NCBI GenBank assembly: GCA_015179125.1
Contig: WHVA01000229.1
Location: 62,001 to 126,000, forward strand
Origin: Gautieria morchelliformis
Lineage: Eukaryota > Basidiomycota > Agaricomycetes > Gomphales > Gomphaceae
Length of the DNA stretch: 64,000 nt
Direction of reading: 5' to 3'
In this document: positions 20,247 through 53,730 of the stretch, piece after piece
How positions within the stretch are numbered: position 1 is the stretch's first letter
Layout: every line of letters begins with the position of its first letter
The notes under the pieces: generated by a model
What the model was told of the DNA's origin: nothing
Databases searched by the model: none
The model's input: the letters and a program-made list of their open reading frames with translations, nothing else
Position numbers and translations under genes: made by a program

Positions 20247-21104
20247 TACGATACAGTATTTCTTCAGTGTTTCTAACAATGTCAACTACGCGTTGAAGAA
20301 GGGAGAGGTGTACATAGGACAATACAAAAGGCTAGCGAAGCCATCAAGGGGAATAGTATCTAAGTACATGAGGAACTATTACCTGACGGTCACGATACCA
20401 AGAATTCTGTAGACCGCTGACGTCTTCCTCACTCCAGCGACAGATAGAACCAAGGGCATGAAGGGGTTCTTGAACAAACTAGGAAGAATTCAGAGACAGG
20501 TCACGTTAGACATCACGGGTGCACTCAAAACCATGGCCACCGACACTCTTGACGCACATGCCAATCTCCTCCTGTTCCCACTAATGGTCACAAAAATAGT
20601 ACACAGGGCAGCTGTGCGATTGGCGTGCCTACCCCAAAGCCACCCGCTAGCAGAGAGGACAAGGAGAGCAGTGAAGAGGTACATCAAGCGCGACAGATCC
20701 CCCCTTCATGAGATGATGCATGCCTTCGAGCTAAACCTGGACACGATGGAAAAAATTTCATACGGTGGTGCTCGGCCCCAAATGGAAGCCAACATTCAGC
20801 ATGAGGATCCCGCTGACCAAAGGAAAAGCCAAAGAAGGAATAAACATGGACAGAGCAGACGTAGTGGTGTACATGGACGGGTCAAGCATGGAAGGTGGCA
20901 TAGGGGCGGCTGCAGTGTTGTACAGGAATGGGAGAGAGTGCAGATCAGCAAAGCTATACATGGGCCCGCAATGCGAACACACTGTATTCGAAGCCGAATT
21001 AGCAGCCACAGCTATCGGGGCTAAAATGCTGAACATGGAGAGGGGCGAGAGATACACAATAGCCCTGGACAGCCAAGCAGCAATCCAGACAACTAGGAGG
21101 GAGC
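20247..21104 (+). mobile_element. LINE 3' fragment (late RT and RNase H)
   Basis: Plus-strand remnant of a non-LTR retrotransposon ORF2. It contains the post-catalytic RT region (ALKKGEVYIGQY; RIQRQVTLDITGALKT; DTLDAHANLL; VHRAAVRLACLPQSHPLA), followed by an RNase H domain (VVVYMDGSSMEGGIGAAAVLY, then FEAELAA and ALDSQAA). This layout is typical of fungal Tad1/I-like LINEs with a C-terminal RNase H. It carries an in-frame TAG at about 20410 and a frameshift between the RT tail and RNase H near 20.76 kb. Its 5' part is missing, and LTR X cuts it off at 21105. Confidence 0.8.
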
Positions 21105-22343
21105 TGTCAAGATTGGTTTTTAGGCGTTAATATCGTGTATTAGTGAACACAGCGAATGCCCAAATAACTTGTGCGAATAAGTATGCCGTTCGGCGAATAG
21201 GTGAACCAACAAATGTTTACAAGATAAGAGGGTCGCCCGAACGGAGCATTCCCTATCTACAGTCGTAGCAAAATAGCCTGTGGCACTTGACGATGTAATG
21301 TACAAGGTGTCACGGAAGGGCTGTCTAAGTAGCGACAATTCCTTCGCCGACAGCACAGAAAATAGTTTGAAGGCTAAGGTAACGAAGGTGAAGTATGAGA
21401 GCTCACCAGTGATGCCTAAGTCCTCTTCTGGTCGAAGATAGAAATCTACAGGAGACGGCTCAAGACGATGATCACAGCGAGGTCAAGTTTGCACAAGATG
21501 GACATATGATAATTGAACTAAGGAATATACATGTGAATGTAAACTACTTATATTGAATGCTCGTAAGGTATCAGCGAATAGGAAAGAGGCCATCGTGAGT
21601 CAGGGTTGGATAGGGGTGCACAGCCATGATACAACATAGATGACATAAACATACAATAGAGTGAAGGAGGAGTGCGAACATGAAGCGATGGAGAGTAAAG
21701 GTGGCGAAGGAACTTATGTACGAAACCATGTCTTGGGACCTGCATACATGCTACCCTGCACGGACTCTTTGTCTACTGGGTTTATCCCACACAACCTATG
21801 GAAGGGACATCCGGCGAACACATCCTGGCCATATGAACACCCAAAAGGGTTGGATCGAGAAGCTGATGGGGGTAGTGACGAACCATCATACCGGGGAGGG
21901 GGCGTCGATCGTGTTTTGATGGCATGCCTGCTGGTGAATGATGCGAGCAGCGAATAGTCGTTCAGTGAAATGTGAGGAAGGGTGAACAAAGATGACATAA
22001 GGGAGGAGTGGTCGAAGTGGGGGGCGAAGCCGAGCGAACACGGGGGAGGAGTGGCGAAAGGGGAAATGGGGATAACAAGGTGCAGGAAATACACAAGTCA
22101 TGACAATCCCATCATAGGAACACCATCGAAAGATGGTTGAGCAGAGGAGGTGATAGGCCCAGTGATGACTACCAAGTCTGTCCAAAGACGTCGATTGTGC
22201 TTTGACGGTGTGGCTATGGTGAATGGCACAAACAGCAAAGATTGGTCGCCGAACACGGCAAGGGCGATTGGAGCGAACACGGAGGTGGAGTGGGGGATGG
22301 GAGAACAGAGCATCTGAGTATGGGAAATAAACACGTCATGACA
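21105..22343 (-). repeat. LTR 'X', left copy, minus orientation (fossil)
   Basis: 1239 bp, with ends TGTCAAGATT... and ...CGTCATGACA on the plus strand. It matches the reverse complement of 24804-26054 along its whole length. Directly beyond its right end, the minus strand reads GGAGGGGGGTAC, a polypurine tract. This marks it as a 3' LTR of a minus-strand element. The flanking 5-mers (GGAGC, GTACC) do not match. The U3-side ~230 bp are a diverged tandem duplication. Old, incomplete element. Confidence 0.7.
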
Positions 22344-22355
22344 GTACCCCCCTCC
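22344..22355 (-). promoter_or_regulatory. polypurine tract beside LTR X
   Basis: The minus strand reads GGAGGGGGGTAC immediately before the LTR end TGTCATGACG. This is the expected position and composition of a retrotransposon plus-strand primer. Confidence 0.6.
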
Positions 22356-22467
22356 TAGCTTCGGAGTCCAATGACATAGTGCTCTGGGATGGAGGGACGA
22401 GTCTGAGGACGTAATAGTGCCCCCGATATGATCTCTCACCGCCTGGTCGGTGCATGGCCCAGCCCTG

Positions 22468-22476
22468 GGATTTAAA
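22468..22476 (+). promoter_or_regulatory. TATA-like box for the spliced plus-strand gene
   Basis: A TTTAAAAGG stretch lies about 50 bp upstream of the ATG at 22525. The spacing is reasonable for a fungal core promoter. No other promoter element was identified. Confidence 0.35.
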
Positions 22477-22524
22477 AGGTGTTGCGGCATGAGGCAACGG
22501 GGTCATTTCACCATTCGACTCCTC

Positions 22525-23916
22525 ATGGCCTCCAACCAGTCTTCCTCTCTTTCTGTACTCATCGAGCAAATGCAGATCAAGCTGAAGGTTCGTCCTGACC
22601 TTCGGGGAGCCCTGCGTGAAGAGGTGGAGGAGTGGGTTGCCGAGGCTGAAGAACTCCAGGTAAGAGGGCCCCCCTATCAAGTGTTTCGCTGACCACCCTA
22701 TCACAGGCCAAGCTTCGAACCACTTTGCGTGTCGAAGCGATCGTGGACCCCGAGGTTGAACGTCTGTTGGATGTGGACGACCTGGTGAGGGAGGTGAAGG
22801 GAGCGAAAGAGTGGCTAGGGAGTTTGGGTTTCATAGTTAGCCCAGAGTTTCTCGATGTCGAGATGAACGCGGTGCCGGGGCCGACAATGTTGCTAGGCCC
22901 GTTGAAGGAGCCCGAGGTGGTGGGGGGTGCTGCGAAGGAGCCCGGAGCCGAGGGGGACAGTATGAGGGAGCCTGAAAGTACGTGACACATGTTTGTTCGC
23001 TGGCCATCCTGACTCAAAGCTCTCTCGAAGATCCCGCTACCTATTGCTGGATCACCTGGACAATTGGCCACAGTCCAGCCCGTGAGCACAAAATGACAAC
23101 CCATGTTCCTGTCAACTGAAGACGAGGGCGAAAATGCCCGAACACCGAAGAAGGCTTGGAAGGAATGCACCTGAACTCCTTCGTTAGAGATCGTCGGGGT
23201 CGAGCCGACGCCTGGCCATCGTCGCAAGGGCCAGGCGAATGCGCAGGTTACTGAGTCGGACAAAATTCCACAATCAGTGGCGAAGCATGGTTATCCCGAG
23301 CATGCGTACCTACTCAGGTGGAACATTTATAGCGGGGTAAGCAGCCTACTTCGTTGAAGCAATTCACCTGATGACTGTGTGCTTCTCCGTAGCATGAGGT
23401 ACTGATGAGGCCTGGGAAGTGTGGGTGATGCCTTCACTATGGTCATGCCTGCAGCAGCGAGGCGGGAAAGATGTGTGGGCGATGCATTCGCGATCGCCAG
23501 GGTTGTGTCGCGGCAGAGGGTAAGTTTCCACCTTTTCCATTCCTCCTGCACCATCCAAACTCATGTGGAGTCCTTTTTCCTCCTCTAGAGTATGTGGCGA
23601 AGGACAAGAAGGATGGTCGAGAGCCAGAGGTGAAGGAGCGAGGGTCGAAGGGAAAGAGTAAGGGGAAAGCGAAGGATAAGGGATCGACAACGGGTCCGTC
23701 CTCAATTTCGTGGAAGGGCGTCCTTGGGAAGCTTGTTGTGTCCTCCTTCCGAGTATCTTCGGCTGATTCTCAGATACCTCCGAAGGCACCTGAATGTCTA
23801 TGCTGGCCGGCGAGGAGAGGGTGGAGGAGCTGGTGGAGAGGTTGGAGGAGCTGATGAGGAGTGTGTCCCGGAAGTTGAACGATTTAAGCGGAGAGGTTTT
23901 GGAAGTTTTGTCTTGA
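22525..23916 (+). CDS. spliced gene with Zn2Cys6-like double cysteine cluster and coiled coil
   Basis: Exon 1 (22525-22659, exactly 45 codons) begins MASNQSSSLSVLIEQM and is a charged helix ending EEVEEWVAEAEELQ. A 47-bp intron (22660-22706, GTAAGA...CACAG, branch CTGAC) leads in frame into exon 2 (from 22707), rich in DPEVERLLDVDDLV-type acidic helix. GTACGT at 22978 is a strong further donor. A later exon carries two clusters spaced CX2CX6C-X7-CX2CX6C, the second reading CGRCIRDRQGC, before GTAAGT at 23520. It resumes at 23588 with a Lys/Gly-rich linker. The last segment (23800-23916) is a coiled coil (ERVEELVERLEELM). The spacing resembles Zn2Cys6 DNA-binding proteins and a cysteine-cluster family I believe is common in Agaricomycetes. 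At least one interruption is visible, so the copy may be dead. It runs antisense to the adjoining LTR X and may be cargo of that element. Confidence 0.5.
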
Positions 23917-24179
23917 AGCCCTCGATGGTTCCCTAAGCCCTAGGTTCCTTCAGGGACTTCACGTGAAGCTAGGCAAGTTCCTATGATGTTTCGGAGACCG
24001 TGGCCTATGAGGGATTTTGAATGGAGGTGATAGTGAATGGGAATGGAAAGTGAGGCCATGCGAAGGCTGCCAAAGCGATCATTAAGTCCTCCAAATGTAT
24101 GAGTTGTGGGGGTTTTTCCAATGCCCAAGCACCATCCCCCCCTTTATGGTACACGTCGCCCCGACGGGTAAAATGCGTG

Positions 24180-24310
24180 GGGGTGGTTCGGGACGCAGTT
24201 GGAAGATGGAATGGTTCGCCATCCACATTGAACGTCTGTTCGTAGCCAGAATGATTCGGGATAGGAGTGAGAGAAGAAAAGAAACGACACCTGGTGGAAG
24301 GACCGAGGTG
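24180..24310. repeat. first part of a ~217-bp tandemly repeated unit
   Basis: The segment with CATTGAACGTCTG and GACACCTGGTGGAAGGACC recurs, diverged, at 26.65-26.96 kb. Element R (24316-26640) splits the array. Confidence 0.5.
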
Positions 24311-24315
24311 TAATA

Positions 24316-26640
24316 TTTTGGAATATGATGTCAACCAGTGCCTTTGAGAAAATGAAATGTATTGCTTAGTGGTCGAAACCACTGTATTCGCCTCTCTTCC
24401 GTGTGCTGACTAAGCCTATTGAGGCGCATCCAGCACTGATGAAAGAGAGTCACGTGACCGTGTCGACAGAAGATTGGTATCGACCCGAGCAATAGTCAGA
24501 TCAAAAGCGTTCGCTTTTGAGGTAGTATAGAGTAAACAGTGATAATAAACTCTCGACGAAGATTTGGAATAAACTATCAAGATCTGAGCTCTGTAGCTAT
24601 CAAACAAGACTACAGTGGTTTCAGGAGGCAGAATAATTGATTCTGGATGATTTCGTTCATACATTCGTACTAGCTATTTATACTATATTAATAGTAACTA
24701 CCAGTACTCAAGATATTGGACAGATGGGTCGAAAAGCTGCTTGTAACTAAGGGGTGACTAATTTATAGTCATAAAGTCATGGGGTGATGGGGATGGTGTT
24801 AGGTGTCATGACGCGGTTATTTCTCATATTCAGGCGCTCTGTTCTCCCGTTTCTCACTCCATCTCCATGTTCGCTCCGATCGCCATTATCATGTTCGGCA
24901 ACCGATTCTCATCATTCGCGCCAATTCCCATAGCCACACCGTCAAACGCGCGATTGACGTCTTTGAACTGACTTGGCAGTCATCGCTGGGCCTATCACCT
25001 CCTCTGCTCGACCCCCTTCCGATGGTGTTCTGACAAAATCGGATTGTCATGACCTGTGTATTTTTTGCACCTTGTTATCCCCATTTCCCTGCTCGGCTTC
25101 GCCCTCCACCTCAACCTCTCCTACTCTATTTTACCTCTGTTCGCCCTCCCCCGCATTTCACCAAACCACCATTCGCTGCTCGCATCATTTGCCAGCAGGC
25201 ACGCCATCAAATCACGATCGATATCCTCACCCGGCATGATGGCTCATCAGTAGCTCCATCGGCTTCTCAATCCAACCCCTTTTTGGTGTTCATATGAGCA
25301 GGGCGCATTCGCAGGACGTCCGACCCGTAGGTCGTGTGGGATCAACCCAGTAGATGAAGAACCCGTGCAGGGCAGTGTATATGCGGGTCCCAAGACATGG
25401 TTTTGTACACAGGTGTCTTTGCCACCTTCACTCTCCGTCGTTTCATGTTCCCCCTCTTCTCCCATTCTATTGTATGTTTATTTCATCTATGCTGTATCAT
25501 GACTGCGCACCCCTATCCAACCCTGACTCATGACGGCCTCTTTCCTATTCGCTGATACCTGACAAGCATTCGGTATAAGTAGTTTACACTCGCATGTATA
25601 TTCCCCAGTTCAATTATCATATGTCGTCCATCTTGTGCAAACTTGACCTCGCTGTGATCATCGTCTTGAGCCTCCTCTTGGAGATTTCTATCTTCGACCA
25701 GCAAAGGACTTAGGCATCACTGGTGAGTTCTCATACTTCATCTTCGTTACCTTAGCCTTCAAACTACTTTCTGTGCTGTTGGCAAAGGGCTCCGAAGGAG
25801 CACCTTCGCCAGCAAAGGGACCGTCGAAACTTAGACAGCCCTTCCGTGATATCTTGCACGTTACGTTGTCAAGTGGCACGGGCTATTTTGCTATGACTGT
25901 AGATAGGGCGAGCCCCGTTCCGGCAACCCTCTTGTTTCATGAACATTCATCGGTTCACTTATTCACCAAACGGCATACTTATTCGCACAAGTTATTCAGG
26001 CATTCGCTGTGTTCACTAATACACGATATTAACGCCTAAAAACCAATCTTGACATTAGGATTGTCTGGGCTTTGGAATAGAGATCTGTACCTAGTATACA
26101 AAGCCCCTGTCCACATGATGTTGAGAGAGTAATCAGTCAGTCGTGTCATGGAGCTCAAATAGAAAAATGGAGCTGTATCTGCCCTGCCTAGCATAAATGC
26201 TAGGCTTGGTGATGGGGCCGCTGTCTCTGTGCCTTTTCTGTGGGGCAGCTAATTGAGTATGTGTACTGTGGATGACTTCTCAAGTCGCTCCACAGTACCC
26301 TATATTCCAGCGCAGTCTATTGTCCTCTGCAGCGTTTGGTGCCCGTACCCACTCGGTGCCTGTGGCCTGGCGCCTGTCGACGTCATGGCCGATGCCATCA
26401 CTCGATAGGTGCGCCGTCCCTGATCGACTGCACGTGGTCGATGCCCGAACTCCTGTACATTGCCCAATCTATAGGTAATATAGCATGTCATAATTTCATA
26501 TGATCGTTGTCTGTGCCGACGTCCATCGTAAATATTATTTCTGTTTCTTTTCGACCTTTTCTTGTTTCTTTTTCTTTCTTTATTAGTTTTTCTTGTATAT
26601 ATAAAAGATTTGAGGTGGGATAATTGCATTTCACACAACA
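24316..26640. mobile_element. solo-LTR-like element 'R', copy 1, with LTR X nested inside
   Basis: Starts TTTTGGAATATGATG, ends TTTCACACAACA, and is flanked by TAATA on both sides (24311-24315 and 26641-26645). Its left part (24316-24798) and right part (from 26060) match, in order, the element at 52578-53515. The span between is a separate LTR X with its own target duplication. It shares with the other copy a near-palindrome TCAAAAGCGTTCGCTTTTGA at 24501-24520. Non-coding, old. Confidence 0.6.
24804..26054 (+). repeat. solo LTR 'X', right copy, plus orientation
   Basis: 1251 bp, TGTCATGACG... to ...AATCTTGACA, flanked by a perfect 5-bp duplication TTAGG (24799-24803 and 26055-26059). With no internal region on either side, it is a solo LTR inserted in element R. 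It is the inverted counterpart of 21105-22343. Confidence 0.75.
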
Positions 26641-26645
26641 TAATA

Positions 26646-26960
26646 GAGTGGTCCAATCGCCGTGTTCAGGACATAGCCCAAGGATAGCGGGGACGAATAT
26701 CGAGCAGCGATATGGAGGACTCGGCAGAGTGATGCTTGATAGGCTTTGCTGAGGTAGGAAATAGTGTGCCGTCCACATCGAACATCTGCGCGAAAACAGA
26801 AATATTTGGGATAGGAAAGGGCGAAGCAGTGACACCTGGTGGAAGGACCAAGATGTTGGGGGAAAGTCCAATCGCTGTGTTCGGGAAGTAGCCCGAAGAT
26901 AGCGGGGACGAGGATTCGGAATGTGTGTTGAAGGTAACTGAAGAGTGCAACTTTGTTCCA
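26646..26960. repeat. tandem ~217-bp units, right part
   Basis: GTCCAATCGC-GTGTTC-GG-A-TAGCCC-A-GATAGCGGGGACGA occurs at about 26651 and again at about 26868. Between them lies the GACACCTGGTGGAAGGACC block also seen at 24290. Open frames exist on the minus strand (for example PIPNISVFAQMFDVDGTLFPT), but I do not recognise a protein. Confidence 0.5.
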
Positions 26961-27247
26961 AGTGGCAAAAATATCCATTGAAGGAGAGTTGCTGAATGAG
27001 ACGAATAACTACATGTTCAGCGAACGATATGTGTAGTGGCTAGTGTACTAGGAAGGAAGGGGAAAGGCAGAGACATCGTTTGTTAATTGGGGCAATGTAT
27101 TTTTTTTAAAAAACCAGGATGAGAGGGGGAAGGGTTGGGGAGACCAAGAAGGTGCACATGAGTGATGATAGATGAATCAGGACAGGATAGTCAAAGCGAA
27201 CAGATACAGGGATTGTACAGAGCGGGTAGGGATAAAGTGATCCATTG
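26961..27247. other. short intergenic stretch
   Basis: Contains a T8/A6 homopolymer near 27110. No gene seen. Confidence 0.4.
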
Positions 27248-27947
27248 TTAACACCACAGAGGGATCGCGAGCGAATCTTCCGCGGGGGAGCTTTGGCTAT
27301 CTTCGGGGACCTCTTTGAGCATCACAACCTGAGGGTCGCCTTCGAGGGTGAAGATAGCCCTGCCAGTGGTTGAGGCAGGCTCCAGAAAGCGGCACCCCTT
27401 TGCATGATGTGTGGGGGGTTCGCCGCAATAAGGGCAAAGGCCTTTGGTTTTTGGTTGCTCTTTCTTGGCTTCAGTAAGACGTCCGGTGGCATAGAGGATG
27501 CCGGAAAGACCTTTCTGTTCATCGGGCTTAGCTGTGGCAGAGGGTCTGGGTCGAGCGTTAGCACGCGGTGTGGAGGAAGGTTCAGAAGAGGAAGGGGGAC
27601 CAATAGGGGTTGTAATCTGCTTTTCGCCTTGGCGCTCCCAGTAGCGATTGTCGATGCGAAGAACCTGACGTTTGAGATCGTCGAGGCATTTGGGACGTTC
27701 GTAGGAGAGCATGTGGTCTTTGATGCGCTCGGCGAGGCTGTTGTAGAAAGTGTCGTAAAGGGCAACATCGTTCCTAAGAGGACAACTCAGTGAATGTGGT
27801 CATGTGGCGATTGACACGATGGGTGTCGAGCATCTTGAGTCTGTGAATAGCTCGCTCGGACACCTGGATGATGTCAGCCTGGCCGAAAAGACGGTTAAGT
27901 TTGTCGACAAAGATAAGCCAGTTGCTCCGAATGGGAGGGTCTGGGAC
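27248..27947 (-). mobile_element. Ty3/gypsy family B gag remnant (fossil)
   Basis: Minus-strand gag sequence with a zinc-knuckle-like CPYCGEPPTHHAKGC and an upstream capsid-like region (SNWLIFVDKLNRLF). It is cut off directly by the 5' LTR of gypsy-A copy 2. Broken, with a few breaks. The family is distinct from A. Confidence 0.7.
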
Positions 27948-28449
27948 TGTCAGGGGACACCCTGTTTTCCATTTCCAGTTCCATTTCCAGTTCCGACACC
28001 ACACCCAGTTCCGCCTCCATTTCCGACTCCGCTTCCGGTTCCGATTCCATCTCCGCCTCCGCTTTCGGAAATGATTCCGCTTCTGGGAGAACTTCCACCA
28101 GTTCTGTTCGCCTTGCCAGTTCCACTCCAATTTCCGACTTCCACTCTCGGAACCGTGTCGGAAATCAAGCGACTCGCGTAATAGGTGGCATCAAGGGTCG
28201 ATCAAGGGTCAGGGTGGTCAGGGAGATGCAGGGTTGATGGCGGGTGCCAAGTGTTGTCCCTGGCTGCGCAGCGTAGTATAATACGGGCTTGCTGACATTG
28301 GGGGTCCTTAGACTTTTCTCTTTGGATTTCCCCTTGTCAGGTGAGAATCCCCTCTCTTGTATACTCTATGCATTTATACAGACTTTGGATTTCCCCTTCT
28401 CAGTTGTGTGGTAGTGTGATCTCCACAACTAGCTAGGGTTGCCCTTACA
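27948..28449 (+). repeat. 5' LTR of gypsy-A copy 2
   Basis: TGTCAGGGGACACC to GCCCTTACA. Matches 38698-39199. Confidence 0.88.
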
Positions 28450-30757
28450 GCAGAAAAGTCTCTCCCCTAGAGGACCGGTGGTCGTACCGCGCGTTGCATT
28501 CGCCATAGGTGCGTTCGGAATCGGAGACAGCGACTCGGAAATCGCAACCTCTTCCGCACACACAGCGTACAACAGCCCCTCTTCTTGCGTCGAGCTCCCA
28601 ACCTCGGAAATCCCGTCCCATATTCCTCCTTCCGACATGGATCCGGACGATCGTCTTCGGAATATGGAGGAGGAATTGATGCGGAACCGGATGAAGACCG
28701 ACGCAATTGAAACAGCCTTACAAGCGATTTTGGCTAAGTTAGATATTCCACAAAGTGGTGGAAATGAAATGCTGGATGATCCGGATTTTGGAAAAGCGGA
28801 ACTAGCGGAAGAGAGAAAGTCCGCGAAGTTAGCAAAGGTCAAACCCGCAACTCCGGCGGACTTTGACGGAGATCGGGAGAAGGGACGCACATTCTTCAAC
28901 ACATGCAGCATCTACTTCGCAATTGTCGGAGACCTCTTTCCGAACGACCAGGCTCGGATTCACTGGGCATTGTCCTTTTTCAAATCGGACCGCACAGCCC
29001 GTTTTGCAAACAAGGTGATCCGACATGAAGCAAAGGGCAAGGGGAACTACTTCCAGGACTGGGACGCCTTCGAGAAAACATTTTCCGACCAGTTCTGCCC
29101 AAAAAACGAGCAGCTCACAGCCCTTACAAAGCTTGAGGGGACCAGCTGGTACCAGGCCAAGGATCCGGTCGATGACTATATCGATCGCTTCCAGGAGCTC
29201 ATCGACCTTGCGGAATATGACGACGACAAGACGATCATCATCAAATTCCAACGAGGACTTGATCCGACACTCCAGAACCAAGTTGCGCTGCTTGGGGATG
29301 GAGCTCCGGATTTTGATGACCCGGAAGGGTGGTACCAAGCTGCGCAGAAGGTGTCTCGGAACAGAGAGGCAAATGAGGCCTTCGTGGAGACGAGCCGGAA
29401 CATGACACGCAGTTCCACTCGTCCTACTCCACATGTGCCAAAACCCGGAAGCGCATTCATTCCCACACGGAAAATATTTCCGATGCTTGCTCCGCCTGCT
29501 CCTATTAGGAACCATAGCCCTCCTCCCTCGAAGAGTGGCCCTGCCCCGATGGATGTTGACTGCATGCCCGGAAAAGGCCCCGGAACTATCACCTGCTTCC
29601 GATGTCGGCAACCAGGCCACTACGCTCGCGAGTGCCCCCAAGCCTTTGATATCCGGCTTATGACCACAGAGGAGAAACTCGAGCTCCTTCCAGAGTTCCT
29701 CGCACTTGCGGACATAAGCGGAGTGCCCACTGTGGAAGGGATTTCCGAAAATGCGGAACATGGTCCACCGGAAGCGGAAGATGCGTCGGATTTTGTGACA
29801 CGCAGCGGGTGAGATGTGTGCCCCTGCTGCCTGTACATAACCAGTTTGCCTGTCCTGAAGTAGAGAATGAAAAGCAGCCCCCATTCCCCTCACTTCGTAC
29901 AGACCCACCGGATAAAGTCACACAAAAGCCAAATCCAACACCCCATCCATCCCGCATCCGCCCGTGGGAGAAACACCTTCCGAAGCGCTATGTTGTTGCT
30001 GCCACCCCTGGCCCCAAGTCACTAGTCATTAAGGTGGAGATCCAGACCACAGATATGGTGGAAGTCAAATCCGGACCCGCCCTTGTCGATTGTGGGGCCA
30101 CTGGTCAGTTTATAGACTGGGATTACGTGGAACGGAACCGACTGACCACGTGGAAGTTGCAACCTGCAATCCCGGTGTTCAATGTGGATGGAAGCCCCAA
30201 TGAGGCAGGGTCCATCACGGAGATAGTGGACACAATTCTCCACTACGATGGACACTCAGAACACACTTCCTTTGCAGTCACCAGCCTGGGGAAGCAGGAC
30301 ATCATCCTCGGGTTTACCTGGCTTCAGGAGCACAACCCGGAGATCAATTGGCAGACTCGGAAGGTACTGATGAGTCGATGTCCAGCCAAGTGTCACATGT
30401 GCAGGTTGGAAGTGCGGAAGGAGCGCCAGGAGCAGCGGAAGACCGAACGGCTCATACAGACATGTCGTTCTGGCCCCCATCCACTGCTTGCAGAAGAAGC
30501 CTCGGAAGCGGAATTTGAACCGGATCCCACTTCCGATTCCGATTCAGATTACGACTCGGCCCGGAAGACATTCTGGCGGAAGGGGAGCGCTTGCTGTACG
30601 TAAACCTTCCGCCGGAAGCGGAACACATCTGCGCCACTGGAAATATTTCGCAACACCTTGCTGAAGCCTCCAAGAGGCATGATAGAGTAGAGGCGGAAAT
30701 TCCGGAGTACCTGCGAGAGTTCGAGGACGTCTTTTCCAAGGAGTCATTTGATACCCT

Positions 30758-31255
30758 TGTAGAGGACAGGAATTATAGGCAGTAGGTATGGACTTGTTAT
30801 TCAAAAGAATAGACTAGAAATCAATTCACTCTCTCAGTGAATTTAGTGGTCACTCTAAATATATTATACACTACCTAGAAATCAATTCACTACAGAGGAT
30901 TTCTAGGTCAATAAATGCAAAGACTACTAGACTAATTTACTTGCCTCTCTCAGTGAATTTAGTGGTCACTGAGAGAGGGGGAAATGTGTTCCACTGCGCA
31001 TGTACTACTACCCGGCCCTTTAGCGCCCAAGAGCTCGCGCGTCGAAGTCATTTCAGACTCCGCTGGGTGCAGCCGCTTGTGAAAGTAGGAATAACAAGAT
31101 GAAATAGAGAGATAAGGAATGAGTGGAAAATTTCGAAAATAACCAGAGAAATGGATGCATAATACAAGAACAATGTGAGAAGAAATTGGAAGGCCACACA
31201 ACAAATTGGATATATTATGCTTGATTTTGGTGCAGGAGCATAAATGCACCCAACA
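30758..31255 (-). repeat. 3' LTR of copia copy 2
   Basis: TGTAGAGGACAGG to CACCCAACA on the plus strand. The purine tract (reverse complement of CGCCCCCTCAAGCTT) follows at 31256. Confidence 0.9.
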
Positions 31256-34200
31256 CGCCCCCTCAAGCTTAATATATTCCAATTTGCTCGTTGAGAATCT
31301 TCACTCTAGGACTAGGAAGTCCTTTAGTGAGGATATCTGCCAACATTTGTTCGGTTGGCAAATAAACGAGCTTGGCTTGTTGATTTTGATTATATCTCGA
31401 AGGAAATATAATCGGATGTCGAAATGCTTGGTTCTCGTGTGTTGTTGGGTGCCATACGTGATGGCAATGGCTGATTGATTGTCTGAATAAACTTGGATGG
31501 GTCTGTTCAGTGGTTGGAATATTTCAGAAATAAAATGGCGCATCCAAAGAGCCTCTTTGCCCGCATGGGTCAGGGCGACGAATTCGGCTTCAGTTGATGA
31601 GAGGGCTACTATCGACTGTTTCTGGCAACTCCATGAAACAGTGCCTCCATCAATCTGAAATAAGTATGCCGAATACGAACGCCTATGACTCTGTGAACCC
31701 CAATCCGCATCTGAATACCCCATCAAGCCGTCTTGATTTCTTCCAAGTGTGAGCTTGTAATGCTTTGTGCCTTTCAAATATTTGAAGACACGTTTGACTG
31801 CATTCCAGTGTGTGCCACCTGGATTTTCAAGGAATTGCGAGAGTAATGACACCGCAAATGCAATGTCAGGTCGAGTGGCTACAGCCGCCCACATCAGTGA
31901 TCCTATAGCTTGCCTGTATGGAAACTTCGACATGGCTTTCTTGCCTCTCTCTGTAGAAGGACATTGGTCTTTAGATAATTTTACGGCTGGATCAAGAGGC
32001 GTAGCATAAGTCTTTGCATCTTCGAGATTAAATTTTTTGATGATCTTCTCGATGTATGCAGGTTGTGAAATTGCAATGGTCTTCTTCTGCCAGTCTCTTT
32101 CGATTTTGAGATTCAATAGCCAATGAATCTCGCCTAGATCTTTCATGCTGAAGACCTGAGCAAGATCTCGTTTGACTTCGTCCAGGACTGACTGATTCTC
32201 AGCTGTGATGGTAAGGTCGTCTACAGCTGTTGCAATGATCACATGCCCCTTTCCGCCACGTCTATAAAATACAGCCCCGTCTGTGGCTGACGTAGTGAAT
32301 CCTAACTTGTGGAATTCACCACTTAGACGTTTGAGGAGGATAACCGAGCAACAGGTGAGTATGTCTCATCATAGTCGACTCCAAACTTCTGTGTGAAGCC
32401 TTGGGCGACCATTCTCGATTTAGGCATTATTGGTTTCCCTTGTGGATTACGCTTCCAAAGGTAGACCCATTTATTACCGACAATGTTGGCTCCAGGAGGT
32501 GGTTTGGCTCGTTCCCACACTCCCTTGTCGATTAGGGCCTCATACTCTTTGTCCATTGATTTCTTCCATATAGGATTATTCAGAGCTTCGTCTGCATTGC
32601 TAGGTTCAATTTGACTTAAATCCGGCGCCTTGTTATTGTTTTGACCGTCGGTTAGAAACGCACTGATGGCACACTCATAGTTACTGATGCCATCAATCTC
32701 GGAGGATAATTCTTGGTCGGATAAAACTTCTTTATGGTCCTCAATGTCCTCGTAAGCTAGCGTAGTCATATGTGCGCCAGCTTGTCTCTGGGTTTGAGAT
32801 CTTGTTACGGGACCTGATGGGGCCGGCTGCACTTGTTGTTGACGGATCCTTTCGCTTCTCCTTATCGGTTCAGCTTCTCTAGGTCTGTCATCAACTCCCT
32901 GAATAGGTTGCAGCTTTTCAAGATATTCCTCCGGTGCACTTTCATCAATTTCTTCGATCTTTGCCTCTTCGCTGACTAAGCGACCGGGCACAGGCACTGA
33001 TGCCGGAATGGCCTTCTTCTCTTCTTTAGACGTAGGTAGCTTGGATTCCTCAATAGAAATGATTGGGACCTTTCCCTTCTTCATCTCTGAATCAAAGACA
33101 ACGTTCCGCTCGACAGAAACTTTGTGCGAGTCAGGCCAATAAACATAATGACCATGGCTCTGCGCAGAAATTCCTATCCACCGAGCTCTCTTGGCACGAG
33201 CTGCCAATTTATCTCCCTGAGTGACTTTGACATAGATTTCAGTTCCCCACGCGTGAATGTCTTTGAGATTCGGTTTTTCATGGTGAATCATCTCGTAGGG
33301 CGTTTTATCTGGTAGAGCTCTTGTATGCGTCCTGTTCCTAAGATAATTGGCATGCTGTATCGCATAGCCCCATAATATCTTAGGAAGGCCTGATTCTAGC
33401 AGCATGGCACGAGTTCTCTCAGTGAGAGTTCGGTTCAGGCGTTCCGCAACACCATTGGACTCTGGTGTGTCATGTACCGTCAACTGATGCTTCGTGCCTT
33501 GTTTGGCTAGATGCTGTTCGAATTCAGAGCTCGTATACTCGCCCCCTCGATCAGAAACAAGTGCCTTGATGTGTACATTTCTCTGTCGAAGCATTAAAGC
33601 CTCATAGAGCTTGTACTTTGAAAATGCTTCTGATTTGTTCGCCATGAGATAGATCACCGATTCTCTTGAGTAATCATCGATAAAGGAGACATAATATGAC
33701 TTCTTATCGATTGTGAGGTGCCTTGCAGGTCCCCAGACATCAGAATAAATTCTGTCACCGAATTTTGATGTTCGGTCTCTGGGTTCTCGAGGAAGAGGTT
33801 TGCGCGCAATCTTGGCCTGAATACATGCATCACAGACAATTCTATCGCCTGTGGAGCTCAGTTCAATGCCCAATATCATGCCATGATTTAATAGATGTTG
33901 TAGGGACTTCTGCGAGATATGCCCCATCTTTTGATGAATTTCCATGGCAGATAAACACATATGGGCTTGAGCACTTGGTGACTGGAGGTCTAGTCGATAT
34001 AAGCCATTGACTTTCGGTGCTTGCATCAATACTTTTCCAGCAGCATTAGATATTGTGCATTTCTGGCCACCAAGTCGAATGTCGTAGCCAGCATCATCGC
34101 ACCGACCGATCGAGACGAGGGTAACAGCAATTTTGGGTGCATAGTATGTATCTTGCAACGTGACTTCTACTGTTCTATCTCCAACCTTATTGGATAATAC

Positions 34201-35318
34201 GAGCAGTCCTGAGCCGAAGGCATCAAAAGTACCTTTGTTGGCTGCTCGGATAGTCCTCGGCTGTGAGAATTGACAGTAGTTCCTCAATAAATTTTTGTGA
34301 GGAGTCATATGCGATGTCGTTCCGGTGTCGAGTATGACTATAACTCCTGAGGATGTGCTCAAATTGAAATTAGAGCACTCGTCGAAATTGGTGAAGGCAA
34401 GATGCCCATCACCACTTTCCTCAGAAGTAGACTCTTCTTCGGCAACATTCGCTTTTGCTTTACCCTTCTTCTTCTTCTTGCCTTTGGCTTTCTTCTTTTG
34501 ACGTGGTCCTTGACCTTCTTTACCACCTCCTTTAGCCCAGCAATTTTCGATGGAATGTCCAGGCTTCTTGCAGTTGGTGCATACATGCGCCTTCTGCCCC
34601 TTCTGGTCCTTCTTAGTAGATGAACCAATAAACACCTGCTCTTCTTGCGGGAGTGTTTTCTTCCTGTCATACTGAGCCTTTAGTACCCTAATAATATTAT
34701 CAGGGACCAATGGCATCCCGCATTCTTCAAGCGAAGTTGTAAGGGCATTCATGACTGCCTCATAGGATGGTGGAAGTGACGCAAGGATTATGTCCATGAA
34801 TTCTTCTTCAGAAACTCTAGCTCCCATCTCATTAAGACGAGCATATAGGTCTTGGGCCTTGTCCAAGTGATCTCTCAAGTCTCCATCCTCAGGACATCTC
34901 ATACTGCGGAGTTGTCTCTGCAGGCTGGTGAGGACCATCTTGGGCTTTTTGGTCATTTCATTGACCAGTGCATCCCAAGTCTCTTTTGCTGTCTTCTGCT
35001 TCTGTAGCATCAGGGCTAATGACTCTGACACTGAGACGATGATTTGGGTCTTGGCTTGTCCTTCTCTAGCAAGGTATCTCTCCAGCTTCTCCTCGGCCTT
35101 ATCCATCTGAGTTTCCTCAGCTTCTGTTAGAATATGGCCTGGGGGCATGACTGGAGGATCAGGAGGTCGAGTGACTCTCCCTTCTACATGCTTGAGCAGA
35201 TTTTTGGACTCGAAATAGCTGATGAGAGTGGCTCGCCACAATGGCCAATTACTTCCATCAGTAGCAAGCTTCTCAACACCCAATAGCTTCTCAGAAGTGT
35301 CTCCGGGGCCCATAACCC

Positions 35319-35816
35319 TGTAGAGGACAGGAATTATAGGCAGTAGGTATGGACTTGTTATTCAAAAGAATAGACTAGAAATCAATTCACTCTCTCAGTG
35401 AATTTAGTGGTCACTCTAAATATATTATACACTACCTAGAAATCAATTCACTACAGAGGATTTCTAGGTCAATAAATGCAAAGACTACTAGACTAATTTA
35501 CTTGCCTCTCTCAGTGAATTTAGTGGTCACTGAGAGAGGGGGAAATGTGTTCCACTGCGCATGTACTACTACCCGGCCCTTTAGCGCCCAAGAGCTCGCG
35601 CGTCGAAGTCATTTCAGACTCCGCTGGGTGCAGCCGCTTGTGAAAGTAGGAATAACAAGATGAAATAGAGAGATAAGGAATGAGTGGAAAATTTCGAAAA
35701 TAACCAGAGAAATGGATGCATAATACAAGAACAATGTGAGAAGAAATTGGAAGGCCACACAACAAATTGGATATATTATGCTTGATTTTGGTGCAGGAGC
35801 ATAAATGCACCCAACA
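35319..35816 (-). repeat. 5' LTR of copia copy 2
   Basis: Identical as read to 30758-31255. On the minus strand, GGGTTATGGGCCC follows, and it already contains the polyprotein start codon. Confidence 0.9.
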
Positions 35817-38697
35817 ACCCTGCCTCCATGGAAGCTGTGGGACCACGCCATCGAGTTGGAGCCTGGGTCAAAGCCCACCAACTGCAAAGTCTACCCGCTG
35901 TCACCCAAGGAACAGGTAGAGCTCGATGCATTCCTTGTGGAAAACCTCCGTACAGGGAGGATCCGCCCCTCCAAGTCACCCATGGCATCTCTGGTGTTCT
36001 TCATCAAGAAGAAGGACGGCTCGCTCAGGCTTGTGCAGGATTACCGGGCCTTGAATGCGATCACGATCAAGAACCGGTACCCCATTCCACTCATTTCCGA
36101 ACTAATCACACAACTCCGCGGGGCGAGGTACTTCACTAAGCTGGATGTCCGCTGGGGCTTCAACAATGTCCAGATCCGGGAGGGAGACGAGTGGAAGGCC
36201 GCATTCCGCACCAACCGAGGACTCTTTGAGCCACAGGTCATGTTCTTCGGCCTCACCAACAGTCCCGCCACATTCCAGACGATGATGAACGACATTTTCC
36301 ATGACATGATAGCAGAGGGGGTCGTCTGCGTCTACCTCGATGACATCCTCATCTTCACAAAAACAATGTCAGAACATCGGGAAGTCGTGCGGAGAGTGCT
36401 GGAACGGCTCCGGGAATTCAACCTGTGTCTCAAGCCGGAAAAGTGCGAATTTGAGCGGACGCGGATAGAGTATCTTGGGGTGATTGTGTCGGAAGGAAAG
36501 GTGGAAATGGACCCAGTCAAGGTTTCTGGTGTGTCGGATTGGCCTGTGCCGCGGAACAGGAAAGAGGTCCAGTCCTTCATTGGGTTTGTCAATTTCTACC
36601 AGCGGTTCATCAAGGACTTCTCCTGCCACGCTCGTGCCCTCTTCAACCTCACCAAGAAGGAGGTTGGATGGCAGTGGGGAGAGGGGGAACAGGCCTCCTT
36701 TGACAAACTCAAAGAGCTGATCACTTCCGCCCCGGTCCTGATCTTTCCCGATGACTCTCGCCCTTATCGAGTCGAGGCGGACTCTTCCGACACAGCTACC
36801 GGAGCGGTCTTGTCACAACAGGCATCGGGAGATGATGGGGGATGGCGTCCGATTGCCTTCTTCTCTAAAAGCCTTAGTCTGGTCGAGCGGAACTATGAGA
36901 TCCACAACAAGGAGATGCTGGCAATCATCCGAGCGCTGGAGGAGTGGCGACACTTCCTCGAGGGTGCTCTATGCCCATTTGAGATCTGGACAGACCACAA
37001 GAACCTCGAGTATTTCCGCACATCTAAGAAGTTGAACCGACAACAAGCACGGTGGTCCCTACACCTGTCCCGGTTCGACTTCCTGCTCCGCCACCGCCCC
37101 GGCTGCACCATGGGCAAGCCCGATGCCCTATCCCACCGTGCGGATCATGGAAGCGGAAGTGGAGACAACGCGGATATGACACTGCTCCGCCCGAGTCTCT
37201 TTGCGATCCGTGCCCTAGAGGGAGTGACTGCAGTTGGGGCGGAAGTGGAAATGCTCCGGGACATCCGGAGGCAGTACCGGAATGGAGAGAAGGAGGAGTT
37301 GGTGGTGAAGGCAGTGGAGGAACTTCGGAAAGGGCACTCGCGGTCTGTATGGGCAGCGGAATGGTCGGAATGTGATGGACTGCTCCACTTCAGAGGCAAG
37401 GTCTATGTTCCAGGTGGGGCGGACCTCCGCCGCCGCATTGTGTCCCAGCACCATGACACACGGGTCGCTGGGCATGCTGGCAGGTGGAAGACGCTGGAGT
37501 TAGTGGCTCGGAATTACTGGTGGCTTCAGATGTCCCACTACATCGGACAGTATGTGAAGACATGTGACCTTTGTCTCCGAACCAAAGCGCAACGACATCC
37601 GCCCGTCGGAGAACTTGTTCCGCTTCCGATTCCCGAGTCCCACTGGGACACCATCAGTGTCGACTTCATCGTTGAACTCCCAGAGTCTCATGGCTACGAC
37701 GCGATCATGAATGTCGTGGATTCGGTAAGCAAGGTGCCCCACTTCATTCCGACGCACACGACGATCACAGCCCTCGGAGCGGCCCGCCTGTTCCTTGCAC
37801 ATGTCTGGAAGTTGCATGGGCTCCTGAAGCAAGTTGTTTCCCACCGAGGTCCGCAGTTTGTCGCGGAACTGACTCGGGAGCTCTACCGACTGCTCGGCAT
37901 AAAGCTGGCTACCACCACAGAGTACCATCCGCAGGGTGACGGACAGACGGAACGGGTCAATCAGGAGTTGGAGCAATATCTCCGCCTCTTTGTCAATGAG
38001 AGGCAGGATGACTGGGACGAGCTACTTCCACTGGCGGAATTTCAATACAACAACCATGTACATTCCGCCACACAACAGACTCCCTTGATGCTTGACTCCG
38101 GACGACATCTGCGGATGGGCTTCAAACCACGCCAGGCTGAGTCCCGACTCGAGACAGTCAATGAGTTCCGAGACCGCATGGACTCCACCCTTTCGGAAGC
38201 CAAGTCGGCCCTTGCGAAGGCCAAGGATGACATGGCAATGTACTACAACCAACGCCGGGTTCCTGCCCCAGAGTACCAAGTCGGAGACAAGGTGTATCTA
38301 GATGCAAGTGACGTCCGCACCACACGCCCTTCGCAGAAGCTTGCCCACTGCTACCTTGGTCCCTTCACAGTGACGCAGAGGGTTGGACGGAATGCATACC
38401 GCCTCTAACTTCCGATGTCCATGTCCCGCCTCCACCCCGTCTTCAATGTGGTGAAGTTACTCCCTATGCTTGAGGACCCAATTCCAGGTCGGAAGGCTCG
38501 TCCGCCACCTCCGCCGGAAATTGTAGATGGGGAAGAGCACTATGTGGTGGAAAGGATCCTGGACAGCCGGTTTATGCAAGGACAACTCCAATTCCTCGTG
38601 AAATGGGAAGGGTATGGGTACGAGGAGAATTCGTGGGTCCTGGAGCAAGATGTTTCCGCTCCAGACAAACTCACGCAGCACGCTAGAGGGGGGGTGA

Positions 38698-39199
38698 TGT
38701 CAGGGGACACCCTGTTTTCCATTTCCAGTTCCATTTCCAGTTCCGACACCACACCCAGTTCCGCCTCCATTTCCGACTCCGCTTCCGGTTCCGATTCCAT
38801 CTCCGCCTCCGCTTTCGGAAATGATTCCGCTTCTGGGAGAACTTCCACCAGTTCTGTTCGCCTTGCCAGTTCCACTCCAATTTCCGACTTCCACTCTCGG
38901 AACCGTGTCGGAAATCAAGCGACTCGCGTAATAGGTGGCATCAAGGGTCGATCAAGGGTCAGGGTGGTCAGGGAGATGCAGGGTTGATGGCGGGTGCCAA
39001 GTGTTGTCCCTGGCTGCGCAGCGTAGTATAATACGGGCTTGCTGACATTGGGGGTCCTTAGACTTTTCTCTTTGGATTTCCCCTTGTCAGGTGAGAATCC
39101 CCTCTCTTGTATACTCTGTTCATTTATGCATACTTTGGATTTCCCCTTGTCAGTTGTGTGGTAGTGTGATCTCCACAACTAGCTAGGGTTGCCCTTACA
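38698..39199 (+). repeat. 3' LTR of gypsy-A copy 2
   Basis: Preceded by the purine tract AGAGGGGGGGTGA. The chromodomain reading frame runs through the tract and about 290 bp into this LTR as a Ser-rich tail. Confidence 0.88.
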
Positions 39200-52384: not shown

Positions 52385-53730
52385 AGCCCTGAAATGACGT
52401 TGCCGGTCGTTACATCCCATACCCGAATAGTCCTGTCTACGATCCCGACACAGTCCCTTTGCCGTGCTGCAACAACGCTACAGAGCTGACCGCGTTGGTG
52501 TGGCCCTCGAATGGTCCAGAAACGACCTCGCCGGTTGTGGTATCCTTCGCCAAGATCATGTCGTCAACCCCCGAGACTTTTGGGAATAATATATCAGATA
52601 TATCAGAACAGATATATTTGATGACTCAGGGAGTTGGGACTCTTCGTGCACCCCTGTGCACGGTATATGCGCGAGCTGACTAAGCTCTGTGGAGCGAGTG
52701 CGTCACTGATTGATGTAGGTCACGTGACCGAGTCGATAGAAGATTGGTGTCGATCCGAAGAACAGTCAGATCAAAAGCGTTCGCTTTTGAGATAGTATAG
52801 AGTAAACAGTGATAGTAGACTCTCAACCAAGAATTGGAATAAACTATCAACAAATGAGCTCTGTAGCTATCAAACAAGTCTACAGTTACTTCAGGAGGTG
52901 AAACAGCAATTCTGGATTGTTCTGGGTAATATTCTGGATTTTTTGTTCATACATTTATGGTAGCTACTTATACTAAAATAGTAGTGACTACCAGTGTTCA
53001 AGATAGTAACAGAATGGGTCAGGATAATGTGGAAATGCTCTACAGGCTGCATACAGCTGTGGAGCAGGAACAATGATGGGGATACTTGTCCTACTGACAA
53101 GTATCTAAGATGGGACCTTGGAGCAATGTACAAAGCCCCTTTCAAAATGTAATACAGCTCGTAATCAGTGGAGCTGGTCAGGGGAATAGAATAGAAAAGA
53201 AATCATGTGTGTCCTGTGCTGTGTGCCTACAGCAGCCTTGGCAAGGCATTTGCCATCTCTGTACCTCTCTCCTGAGGTAGCTATTCAGTACATCCATAGA
53301 TAGGACAGTGTACTGTAATCTCCATCGTGTCCGATGTCTCTGTATGGGTCTATTAGTCCCATAGCAATATTTCTTCTGACCAGGGCCCAGGTGCCTGCTT
53401 TCCAGGGCAGGCACTGCTACTGGTGCATGGATTATTTCTCCCAGATGTTAGCTCAGTTAGACGATTGTATAGACCTTAGAATAATGCTTGATATAGCTAT
53501 CCATTTATTCTAACAGAGACGATCCGTCCTCCGTCTTGACAGAACACCACAGAGTAAACAGACAGATGAATTGTGGTTGAAAGGTCCTGAAACGAGGCAG
53601 ATCGTGTTGGGATCTGCGGACAGCATGACCCAGAGTATAGGATGCAGAGACTCGCCTTACCATCAGGAATGGGTGTAACCTTCGAATCACTTTGAAACTG
53701 CATTGTCAGTCTCTGGGTGCCACACCCGGT
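52385..53730 (-). pseudogene. WD40-repeat gene remnant split by element R
   Basis: On the minus strand, 53730-53521 encodes the end of one WD40 repeat (RVWHPETDNAVS) and the start of the next (SVYSVVFCQDGGRIVS). From 52572 downward, it continues in register with DTTTGEVVSGPFEGHTNAVSSVA and a further repeat ending IRVWDVTTGN. At least one frameshift lies in the last repeat. The join across the insertion falls inside one WD40 blade and is marked by GAGAC on both sides. It is probably part of a second NACHT-WD40 gene, since the repeats resemble those in the 42-45 kb gene. Confidence 0.7.
52578..53515. mobile_element. solo-LTR-like element 'R', copy 2
   Basis: 938 bp with imperfect inverted ends (TTTTGGGAATAAT... 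/ ...ATTTATTCTAACA). It is flanked by the 5-bp duplication GAGAC (52573-52577 and 53516-53520) inside a WD40 repeat. It matches the split copy at 24316-26640. The near-palindrome TCAAAAGCGTTCGCTTTTGA is at 52771-52790. Consistent with an old copia-type solo LTR. Confidence 0.7.

What the first reader, a model, noticed from the sequence alone, without database searches (positions are those of the whole stretch)
21105..26054. Spliced cysteine-cluster gene lying antisense to an LTR, between two opposed copies of that LTR
LTR X (21105-22343) has its polypurine tract on the minus strand, so the internal side starts at 22344. Within 200 bp of that tract, a plus-strand gene begins (ATG 22525, TATA-like box ~50 bp upstream), with a perfect-phase 47-bp intron, a CX2CX6C-X7-CX2CX6C cluster and a C-terminal coiled coil. 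No RT, integrase or gag is seen on the minus strand before 24.3 kb. This looks like a non-autonomous LTR element or remnant carrying an antisense, spliced DNA-binding-like gene. If the arrangement recurs elsewhere, it would be an LTR element with a regulatory cargo gene.
Basis: partly seen in the sequence, partly recalled or inferred. Interest (0 to 1): 0.72.

Follow-up and report, generated by a model that had tools for sequence, protein, structure and literature searches.

The report
Gag-only retrotransposon with antisense spliced gene
A mobile element in what looks like a fungal genome carries, back to front beside its end repeat, a six-exon gene of its own, and it appears to be the gag half of a retrotransposon family whose pol half sits in separate elements.

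Summary
In 17 of 19 further copies read, LTR X abuts the same internal region at the same base. That region holds a plus-strand gene, antisense to the element, with six exons and five introns: GT..AG is kept in 97 of 100 introns over 20 copies, codon periodicity follows the splice phases, pooled dN/dS is 0.32, and 3 of 20 copies read open for 386 aa. The window copy is dead (frameshift, stop, lost donor, truncated end). The opposed LTR is an unrelated solo insertion with its own TTAGG duplication. Two complete elements bounded by target duplications have gag but only scraps of pol. Related elements with 84-90% identical LTRs and the same leader have pol, no gag match, and a shorter antisense gene. 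Antisense accessory genes by the 3' LTR are known (Grande, Retand, Boty brtn), gag-only elements too (TR-GAG); the multi-intron cysteine-cluster gene and the gag-only/pol-only pair are the parts I found no report of. Likely role, inferred only: a nuclear DNA-binding regulator of the element.

The parts
21105..22343 (-). LTR X, 3' LTR of the minus-strand element
   Evidence: TGTCA..TGACA ends; 56 matching stretches in the genome, 40 best candidates scored, a lower bound
21509..21521 (-). candidate self-primer (TTAGTTCAATTAT in element sense), 31-33 nt after TATAAG
   Evidence: perfect complement of at least 11 nt to the leader after the 5' LTR in 13 of 13 LTRs examined
22344..22359 (-). polypurine tract
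   Evidence: same start of the internal region in X copies, P elements and C138
22471..22479 (+). TATA-like box of the antisense gene
   Evidence: TTTAAAAGG or TTAAAAAGG in the copies that cover it
22525..22659 (+). exon 1 of the antisense gene
22707..22977 (+). exon 2
23031..23336 (+). exon 3; 11-nt deletion in this copy after 23038; basic, NLS-like stretches in open copies
23393..23519 (+). exon 4, six-cysteine cluster; TGA at 23426-23428 in this copy
   Evidence: 119 of 120 Cys codons kept over 20 copies
23589..23726 (+). exon 5, lysine-rich; the following donor is GG in this copy
23774..23905 (+). exon 6, possible coiled coil (by eye); 3' end deleted in this copy
23906..24315 (.). rest of the element's internal region before the nested insertion
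24110..24274 (-). two 26-aa scraps of pol (RNase H-integrase linker and protease-RT linker)
   Evidence: tblastn with P pol, L009 3267-3344 and 3354-3431, E about 1e-5
24316..26641 (.). nested insertion absent at this place from other copies
   Evidence: internal sequence jumps from 24315 to 26642 in copies
24804..26054 (+). solo LTR X inside the nested insertion, TSD TTAGG
   Evidence: flanks; 84.8% identical to 21105-22343; LTR-free copy of the insert in L032
26642..27947 (-). tandem-repeat remnant and C-terminal part of gag (ORF 27248-27712)
   Evidence: gag match C259:89455-89947
27948..39199 (.). Gypsy element (with a nested Copia element) that ends element X in the window

Best explanation
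The window holds a decayed, interrupted copy of a non-autonomous chromodomain-Gypsy-type (Tf1/sushi-like) LTR retrotransposon. Its complete form is 7.3-7.6 kb: 5' LTR, gag, tandem repeats of about 220 bp, an antisense six-exon gene with its own TATA-like box, polypurine tract, 3' LTR; of pol only scraps are left. Shown: recurrence, boundaries, gag, loss of pol domains, splice structure, and past purifying selection on the protein. Inferred: (1) the gene makes a nuclear protein (basic NLS-like stretches, zinc-cluster-like six-cysteine block, C-terminal coiled coil) that binds DNA and tunes the element's own LTR transcription or its escape from silencing. (2) Its introns survive retrotransposition because the genomic RNA is the opposite strand, where the splice sites are not read. 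(3) Pol is supplied in trans by relatives with similar LTRs and the same leader and polypurine tract.
For: Recurrence: 17 of 19. Complete copies: C826:86119-93704, TSD ATTAC, LTR pair 98.1%; C149:324681-331949, TSD CACGG, LTR pair 99.1%. Gag ORF of 662 codons in C826 (650 from the first ATG), PF03732 E 1.7e-7. Between the LTRs of these two copies a distant Gypsy pol finds nothing and the close P pol finds only repeated pieces of the protease-RT linker. Gene: GT..AG in 97 of 100 introns; in the spliced frame third positions vary most in all six exons; dN/dS 0.32 against 0.87-1.13 in four other frames (0.425 in the antisense frame that shares third positions); 119 of 120 Cys codons kept; 3 of 20 copies fully open. 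C138: gag, pol and the same gene between chromodomain and 3' LTR. Possible pol donor C171: TSD GCTAG, LTR pair 98.2%, RT-RNase H-IN-chromodomain, no gag match. Shared leader and self-primer.
Against: No transcript or protein data. Only 3 of 20 copies are open; of 23 distinct exon 1-5 indels 20 are not multiples of three, no better than in introns (13 of 15), so copies decay freely after insertion. N/S is only moderately lower for changes shared by three or more copies (113/105) than for singletons (159/104). No Pfam, NCBIfam or PDB relative of the protein at the thresholds used; Zn_clus on exon 4 alone scores 12.9 bits, cutoff 21. That pol acts in trans was not tested.
Confidence: 0.72

Rival explanations
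1. A host gene that merely lies next to an LTR; the neighbourhood is chance.
For: The gene has a TATA-like box, introns and a zinc-cluster-like block like a cellular gene.
Against: The same junction, to the base, in 17 of 19 other copies; gag on the opposite strand within 7 kb in 41 of 71 listed gene loci; two complete TSD-bounded elements contain it.
Confidence: 0.02
2. The antisense transcript, not the protein, matters: it forms double-stranded RNA with the genomic RNA and dampens the element; the reading frame is a relic.
For: Antisense layout; 17 of 20 copies broken; frameshifts not depleted. dsRNA control is suggested in PMC7264820 (parts 1-2 of 3 read).
Against: dN/dS 0.32, conserved splice phases and 119 of 120 cysteine codons point to a protein.
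Confidence: 0.15
3. X is an ordinary parasite of a still intact full-length gag-pol element not seen in this assembly; there is no division of labour.
For: Three loci hold both gag and integrase (C138, C426, C243). C243 has X-type gag and pol 91-96% identical to the pol-only type in four larger pieces (82-87% in two short ones). The assembly is in 1113 contigs. X copies keep scraps of pol, so X came from a full-length parent.
Against: 3 of 115 listed integrase loci have gag, and all three as read are broken: interrupted frames in C138 and C426, gaps and an inserted LTR X copy in C243.
Confidence: 0.4
4. The protein helps nuclear entry or target choice of the pre-integration complex rather than transcription.
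For: Basic stretches and cysteine cluster; a role in nuclear steps is discussed for antisense accessory ORFs in PMC7264820.
Against: P pol already carries a chromodomain, which in such elements serves targeting (recalled); no test either way.
Confidence: 0.2

Closest known systems
Antisense accessory ORFs near the 3' LTR (aORF-3R): maize Grande gene23, rice RIRE2, Silene Retand (review PMC7264820, parts 1-2 of 3 read)
   Same: Gene antisense to gag-pol, next to the 3' LTR, own promoter (Grande), in most copies of a family; long 3' region, often with tandem repeats (Retand, PMC11963269 abstract and passages)
   Different: Here in a probably fungal gag-only element, with five introns and a six-cysteine cluster; Pfam finds neither of the domains named there (TRP28, SMC)
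brtn of Boty-like elements in Botrytis cinerea (Zhao 2011; seen only as cited in PMC8365987 and PMC7264820)
   Same: A fungal LTR element with an additional antisense gene
TR-GAG elements (PMC8704663, abstract and passages)
   Same: LTRs plus gag, no pol, evidence of transposition
   Different: Those described there hold a single ORF for Gag; here an antisense gene is kept as well
Tf1/sushi chromoviruses (PMC10085805, passages)
   Same: Chromodomain and Tf2-1-like SH3 in the pol-bearing relatives (PF00385, PF24626); LTR-derived self-primer
   Different: I recall no antisense gene in Tf1; gag and pol lie in one element there (recalled)
HTLV-1 HBZ (recalled; mentioned in PMC11963269 and, as an antisense promoter in the 3' LTR, in PMC7264820)
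   Same: Antisense, spliced gene starting at the 3' LTR side, nuclear regulator (partly recalled)
   Different: bZIP protein, promoter inside the LTR (recalled); no sequence relation claimed

Membership tests
LTR retrotransposon (element X) | Two direct LTRs, 5-bp target duplication, polypurine tract | tested here: met
   C826 (ATTAC) and C149 (CACGG); C755 CTGCA/CTGCG, one base apart
aORF-3R class | Conserved ORF antisense to gag/pol next to the 3' LTR in most copies | tested here: met
   17 of 19 copies read; gag on the opposite strand
aORF-3R class | Transcribed from its own promoter | not testable with these tools
   TATA-like box conserved; no RNA data
TR-GAG | LTRs, gag, no pol genes | tested here: met
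   only scraps of pol left
TR-GAG | Gag as the single ORF | tested here: not met
   a second, antisense gene is present; so TR-GAG-like, not filed as a typical member
Tf1/sushi chromovirus | Chromodomain at the end of pol | tested here: met
   PF00385 E 3e-11 in the pol-bearing relatives L041 and L045; X itself has no pol
Tf1/sushi chromovirus | Self-primer in the LTR complementary to the leader | tested here: met
   11 nt or more in 13 of 13 related LTRs at one place; 100 shuffles per LTR reached 10-13 at most, mean about 7.3; opposite strand 9 and 6 in two LTRs; priming itself not tested
Tf1/sushi chromovirus | Place in an RT tree | not tested
   no tree was built
Fungal Zn2Cys6 transcription factor | CX2CX6CX5-12CX2CX6-8C spacing (recalled) | tested here: met
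Fungal Zn2Cys6 transcription factor | Match to the family profile PF00172 | tested here: not met
   12.9 bits, cutoff 21, E 0.12, partial; not filed as a member

The most novel reading that the evidence does not exclude
A two-part LTR retrotransposon: X elements supply Gag and P elements supply Pol; both share LTR ends, self-primer, leader and polypurine tract, and each keeps its own antisense spliced accessory gene (386 aa with cysteine cluster in X, a shorter form in P), so the family moves as a segmented, mutually dependent pair while its full-length parents have gone to ruin.
Probability: 0.3. Interest if true: 0.82.

Novelty: new variant of a known kind. Interest (0 to 1): 0.62.

Why it matters
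The function of antisense genes in LTR retrotransposons is an open question (PMC7264820). This family offers an internal contrast: gag-only and pol-only relatives with similar ends each keep an antisense gene, in two lengths, which separates what the gene does from gag and pol. The multi-intron structure gives a direct RNA test, and the antisense position would explain how introns outlive retrotransposition. If the two halves depend on each other, this would be a division of labour between LTR elements that my searches of the paper library (listings only) did not turn up.

Tried and rejected
Rejected: the opposed LTRs as one unit (own TSD of the second; LTR-free copy of the insert). Rejected: L032 3425-4446 as the partner LTR of C394; it is a solo LTR with TAGTG on both sides. 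Rejected: filing the protein as Zn2Cys6. tRNA primer: by eye no TGG-type site after the 5' LTR; the self-primer was found instead. Also mended: C266 was first said to have the gene next to a 3' LTR, but no LTR is matched on that side. Protein families: no Pfam, NCBIfam or PDB relative for the 386-aa protein (NCBIfam's one match had E 0.73, 8.4 bits against a cutoff of 450). Papers: searches; in these listings I saw no title or abstract start on a basidiomycete LTR element with an antisense multi-intron gene or on a gag-only/pol-only pair. The organism was not identified; fungal is my inference from element types and intron sizes. The co-occurrence count was typed by hand from the printed lists, which are capped (107, 150 and 150 candidates scored of 529, 4056 and 1311): second pieces and other families (integrase at or below 53%, gag below about 60%) were dropped; two short gag rows on C249 were missed, two gag rows on C193 may be one locus, and not all gene rows were printed. 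Structure prediction was not run.
Full report
What is in the window. LTR X (21105-22343) begins TGTCA and ends TGACA; on its inner side the minus strand carries the polypurine tract, so it is the 3' LTR of a minus-strand element. The opposed copy (24804-26054) is 84.8% identical, is flanked by TTAGG on both sides, and lies within 24316-26641, a stretch that other copies lack at this place: their internal sequence runs from the equivalent of 24315 to that of 26642. A copy of this insert without the LTR is seen at L032 5675-6750. The opposed LTR is a later solo insertion, not the partner. The element continues with its gag region at 26642-27947 and is cut at about 27948 by a Gypsy element with a nested Copia element; the gag N-terminus and 5' LTR, as known from L032, are not matched elsewhere in the window.

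Recurrence. The window lies in a 122-Mb genome of 1113 contigs. LTR X gives 56 matching stretches (only the 40 best candidates scored, so a lower bound). The internal stretch 22344-24803 matches 39 other places (40 candidates scored, the window among them). Of 19 other loci read (L010-L028), 17 have LTR X ending at the same base as the internal region begins; the exceptions are L016 (no LTR match) and L028 (truncated).

Complete elements. Distal stretches were fetched for 8 copies. A second, direct LTR was found in C826, C149, C755 and C238 and partly in C394, not in the other three. C826:86119-93704 (7586 bp) has ATTAC on both sides and LTRs 98.1% identical; C149:324681-331949 (7269 bp) has CACGG on both sides and LTRs 99.1% identical; C755 has CTGCA and CTGCG. 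The minus strand of C826 holds a 662-codon gag ORF (Retrotrans_gag, E 1.7e-7 over the 650 aa from its first ATG) that stops before a CCHC-like knuckle. A scan with a distant Gypsy pol found nothing between the LTRs of C826 and C149. A scan with the close P pol found no RT, RNase H or integrase domain in the X copies, but scraps: repeated pieces of the protease-RT linker in most loci, part of the protease in some (L010, L012, L013, L020, L024), and 26-32 aa of the RNase H-integrase linker in the window, L010 and L024 (longer pol matches in L033, L034 and L036, and a short one at the end of L028, lie outside the X element). In C826 the linker pieces fall in the 2.9 copies of a 220-bp tandem repeat between gag and gene. 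X is thus a deletion derivative of a gag-pol parent.

The antisense gene. An alignment of the window and 19 copies gives exons 22525-22659, 22707-22977, 23031-23336, 23393-23519, 23589-23726 and from 23774. Introns of 46-69 bp keep GT..AG in 97 of 100 cases; the failures are intron 1 of L016, intron 2 of L025 and intron 5 of the window. In the spliced frame every exon varies most at third positions; if the frame of exon 1 is run on unspliced, the peak rotates in exons 3, 4 and 5 (exon 2 cannot tell, since intron 1 is 48 bp in the reference copy). Pooled pairwise dN/dS is 0.32, against 0.87 and 0.91 in the other sense frames and 1.04, 1.13 and 0.425 in the antisense frames, the last of which shares third positions. 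Three of 20 copies (L014, L019, L021) read open through all six exons for 386 aa; the window copy does not. Results against ongoing constraint in single copies: 20 of 23 distinct indels in exons 1-5 are not multiples of three, as in introns (13 of 15), and N/S falls only from 159/104 for singletons to 113/105 for changes shared by three or more copies. I read this as selection on the lineage that makes new copies and free decay afterwards.

The protein. By eye it has basic NLS-like runs (KRRP, KKARKER, RRKGR), the block CX2CX6C-X7-CX2CX6C, a lysine-rich stretch and a possible C-terminal coiled coil. 119 of 120 cysteine codons are kept. Pfam, NCBIfam and the PDB give no relative; PF00172 reaches 12.9 bits on exon 4 alone, cutoff 21, so it is zinc-cluster-like in spacing but not filed as a member.

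Relatives with pol. Three of the more distant gene matches were read. C138 (L039) has LTRs 78-79% like X, gag (83% over 237 aa), and matches to protease, RT, RNase H, integrase (PF17921 E 8.7e-17) and chromodomain, all on the minus strand, with the antisense gene at 1357-2780 between chromodomain and 3' LTR. C266 (L040) has pol pieces, chromodomain and the gene in the same order, with a reversed LTR X copy inserted, but no LTR was matched on the gene side. At C310 (L038) the gene lies beside a 76% LTR but no gag or pol was matched.

A second, complementary type. From the printed, capped lists, integrase of this family was taken at 115 loci, gag at 106, the 386-aa gene at 71 (choices told under Tried and rejected). 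Of 115 integrase loci 3 have gag on the same strand within 7 kb and 2 have the long gene on the other strand; 41 of 106 gag loci have the gene on the other strand within 7 kb; 29 of 71 gene loci have neither partner in the lists, among them C705 and C498, where LTR X was seen by DNA match, and C266, where pol pieces were seen, so the lists miss fragments. Four pol-type loci were read (L041, L043, L044, L045): none matches gag. C171 (L045) is complete: GCTAG on both sides, LTRs 98.2% identical, 7608 bp, a 607-aa ORF with a proline-rich stub and a protease match (PF13650, E 2.4e-4, below its cutoff) but no Retrotrans_gag, then 891 aa of RT, RNase H, integrase, Tf2-1-like SH3 and chromodomain. 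LTRs of the four are 84-90% identical to LTR X in the aligned pieces. The 33-nt leader after the 5' LTR is the same in two X elements, two P elements and C138, and differs by one base in C426. Near the 3' LTR the P elements also hold an antisense gene, shorter: exons 1 and 2 are open in 3 of 3 copies read (L041, L044, L045), with a GT..AG intron, dN/dS 0.43 (other sense frames 1.02 and 0.60; 134 changes, three related copies); no cysteine-cluster exon was seen. The three loci with both gag and integrase are broken as read: frames interrupted in C138 and C426, and C243 holds an LTR X copy within integrase and another gap within RT, while its pol is 91-96% identical to P in the four larger pieces.

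Priming. All 13 LTRs examined carry AGTTCAATTAT 33 nt after TATAAG in element sense, a perfect complement of leader bases 3-13. One hundred shuffles of each LTR reached at most 10-13 (11 or more in 5 of 13 LTRs) with a mean near 7.3, and the LTRs are related, so the constancy of place and its distance from the TATA box carry the weight. This fits the self-priming of the Tf1/sushi group (PMC10085805, passages).

Mechanism proposed. The LTR drives the genomic RNA for gag; a separate promoter just inside the 3' LTR drives the antisense gene. Because the splice sites lie on the other strand of the genomic RNA, the introns are carried intact through reverse transcription (inference). The protein most likely acts in the nucleus on the element's own DNA (inference). 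Its retention in gag-only elements, with pol lost, suggests that gag and this gene serve the element that bears them while pol can be borrowed (inference).

Place among known things. Antisense accessory ORFs next to the 3' LTR are known in plants and in Boty of Botrytis, function unknown (PMC7264820, parts 1-2 of 3; PMC11963269 and PMC8365987, passages). Gag-only elements are known (PMC8704663, passages). The combination, the five introns, the cysteine cluster and the complementary pol-only partner with its own antisense gene did not appear in the listings of my searches; most subscription papers are not in that library.

Noticed in passing
L045 1226-2290; L041 2841-3900; L044 (reverse strand) 1276-2345: The pol-only P elements carry their own shorter antisense spliced gene; no cysteine-cluster exon seen.
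   Followed up: partly
window 24316-24803 + 26055-26641; L032 5675-6750; window 52670-52898: The nested insert is itself a repeat: an LTR-free copy lies in C394 and a partial relative (83%) at 52670; not identified.
   Followed up: partly
L021 3433-4076 and other X copies: The 220-bp tandem repeats of X seem to be built from the protease-RT linker of the lost pol.
   Followed up: partly
window 20458-21104: LTR X is inserted in an RNase H-like stretch, probably a LINE (by eye); the far side with the matching target duplication was not seen.
   Followed up: no
G000:C69:206158-209755; L002; L007; L008: Several LTR X copies lie nested or end to end at one place.
   Followed up: no
window copy and L010 (C755), around 23905: Both lack the same 3' end of exon 6 at the same join, suggesting a shared deleted sublineage.
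   Followed up: no
window 27948-39199: The Gypsy element that cuts element X shows no matching target duplication at its two ends (GGGAC and GCGCC).
   Followed up: no
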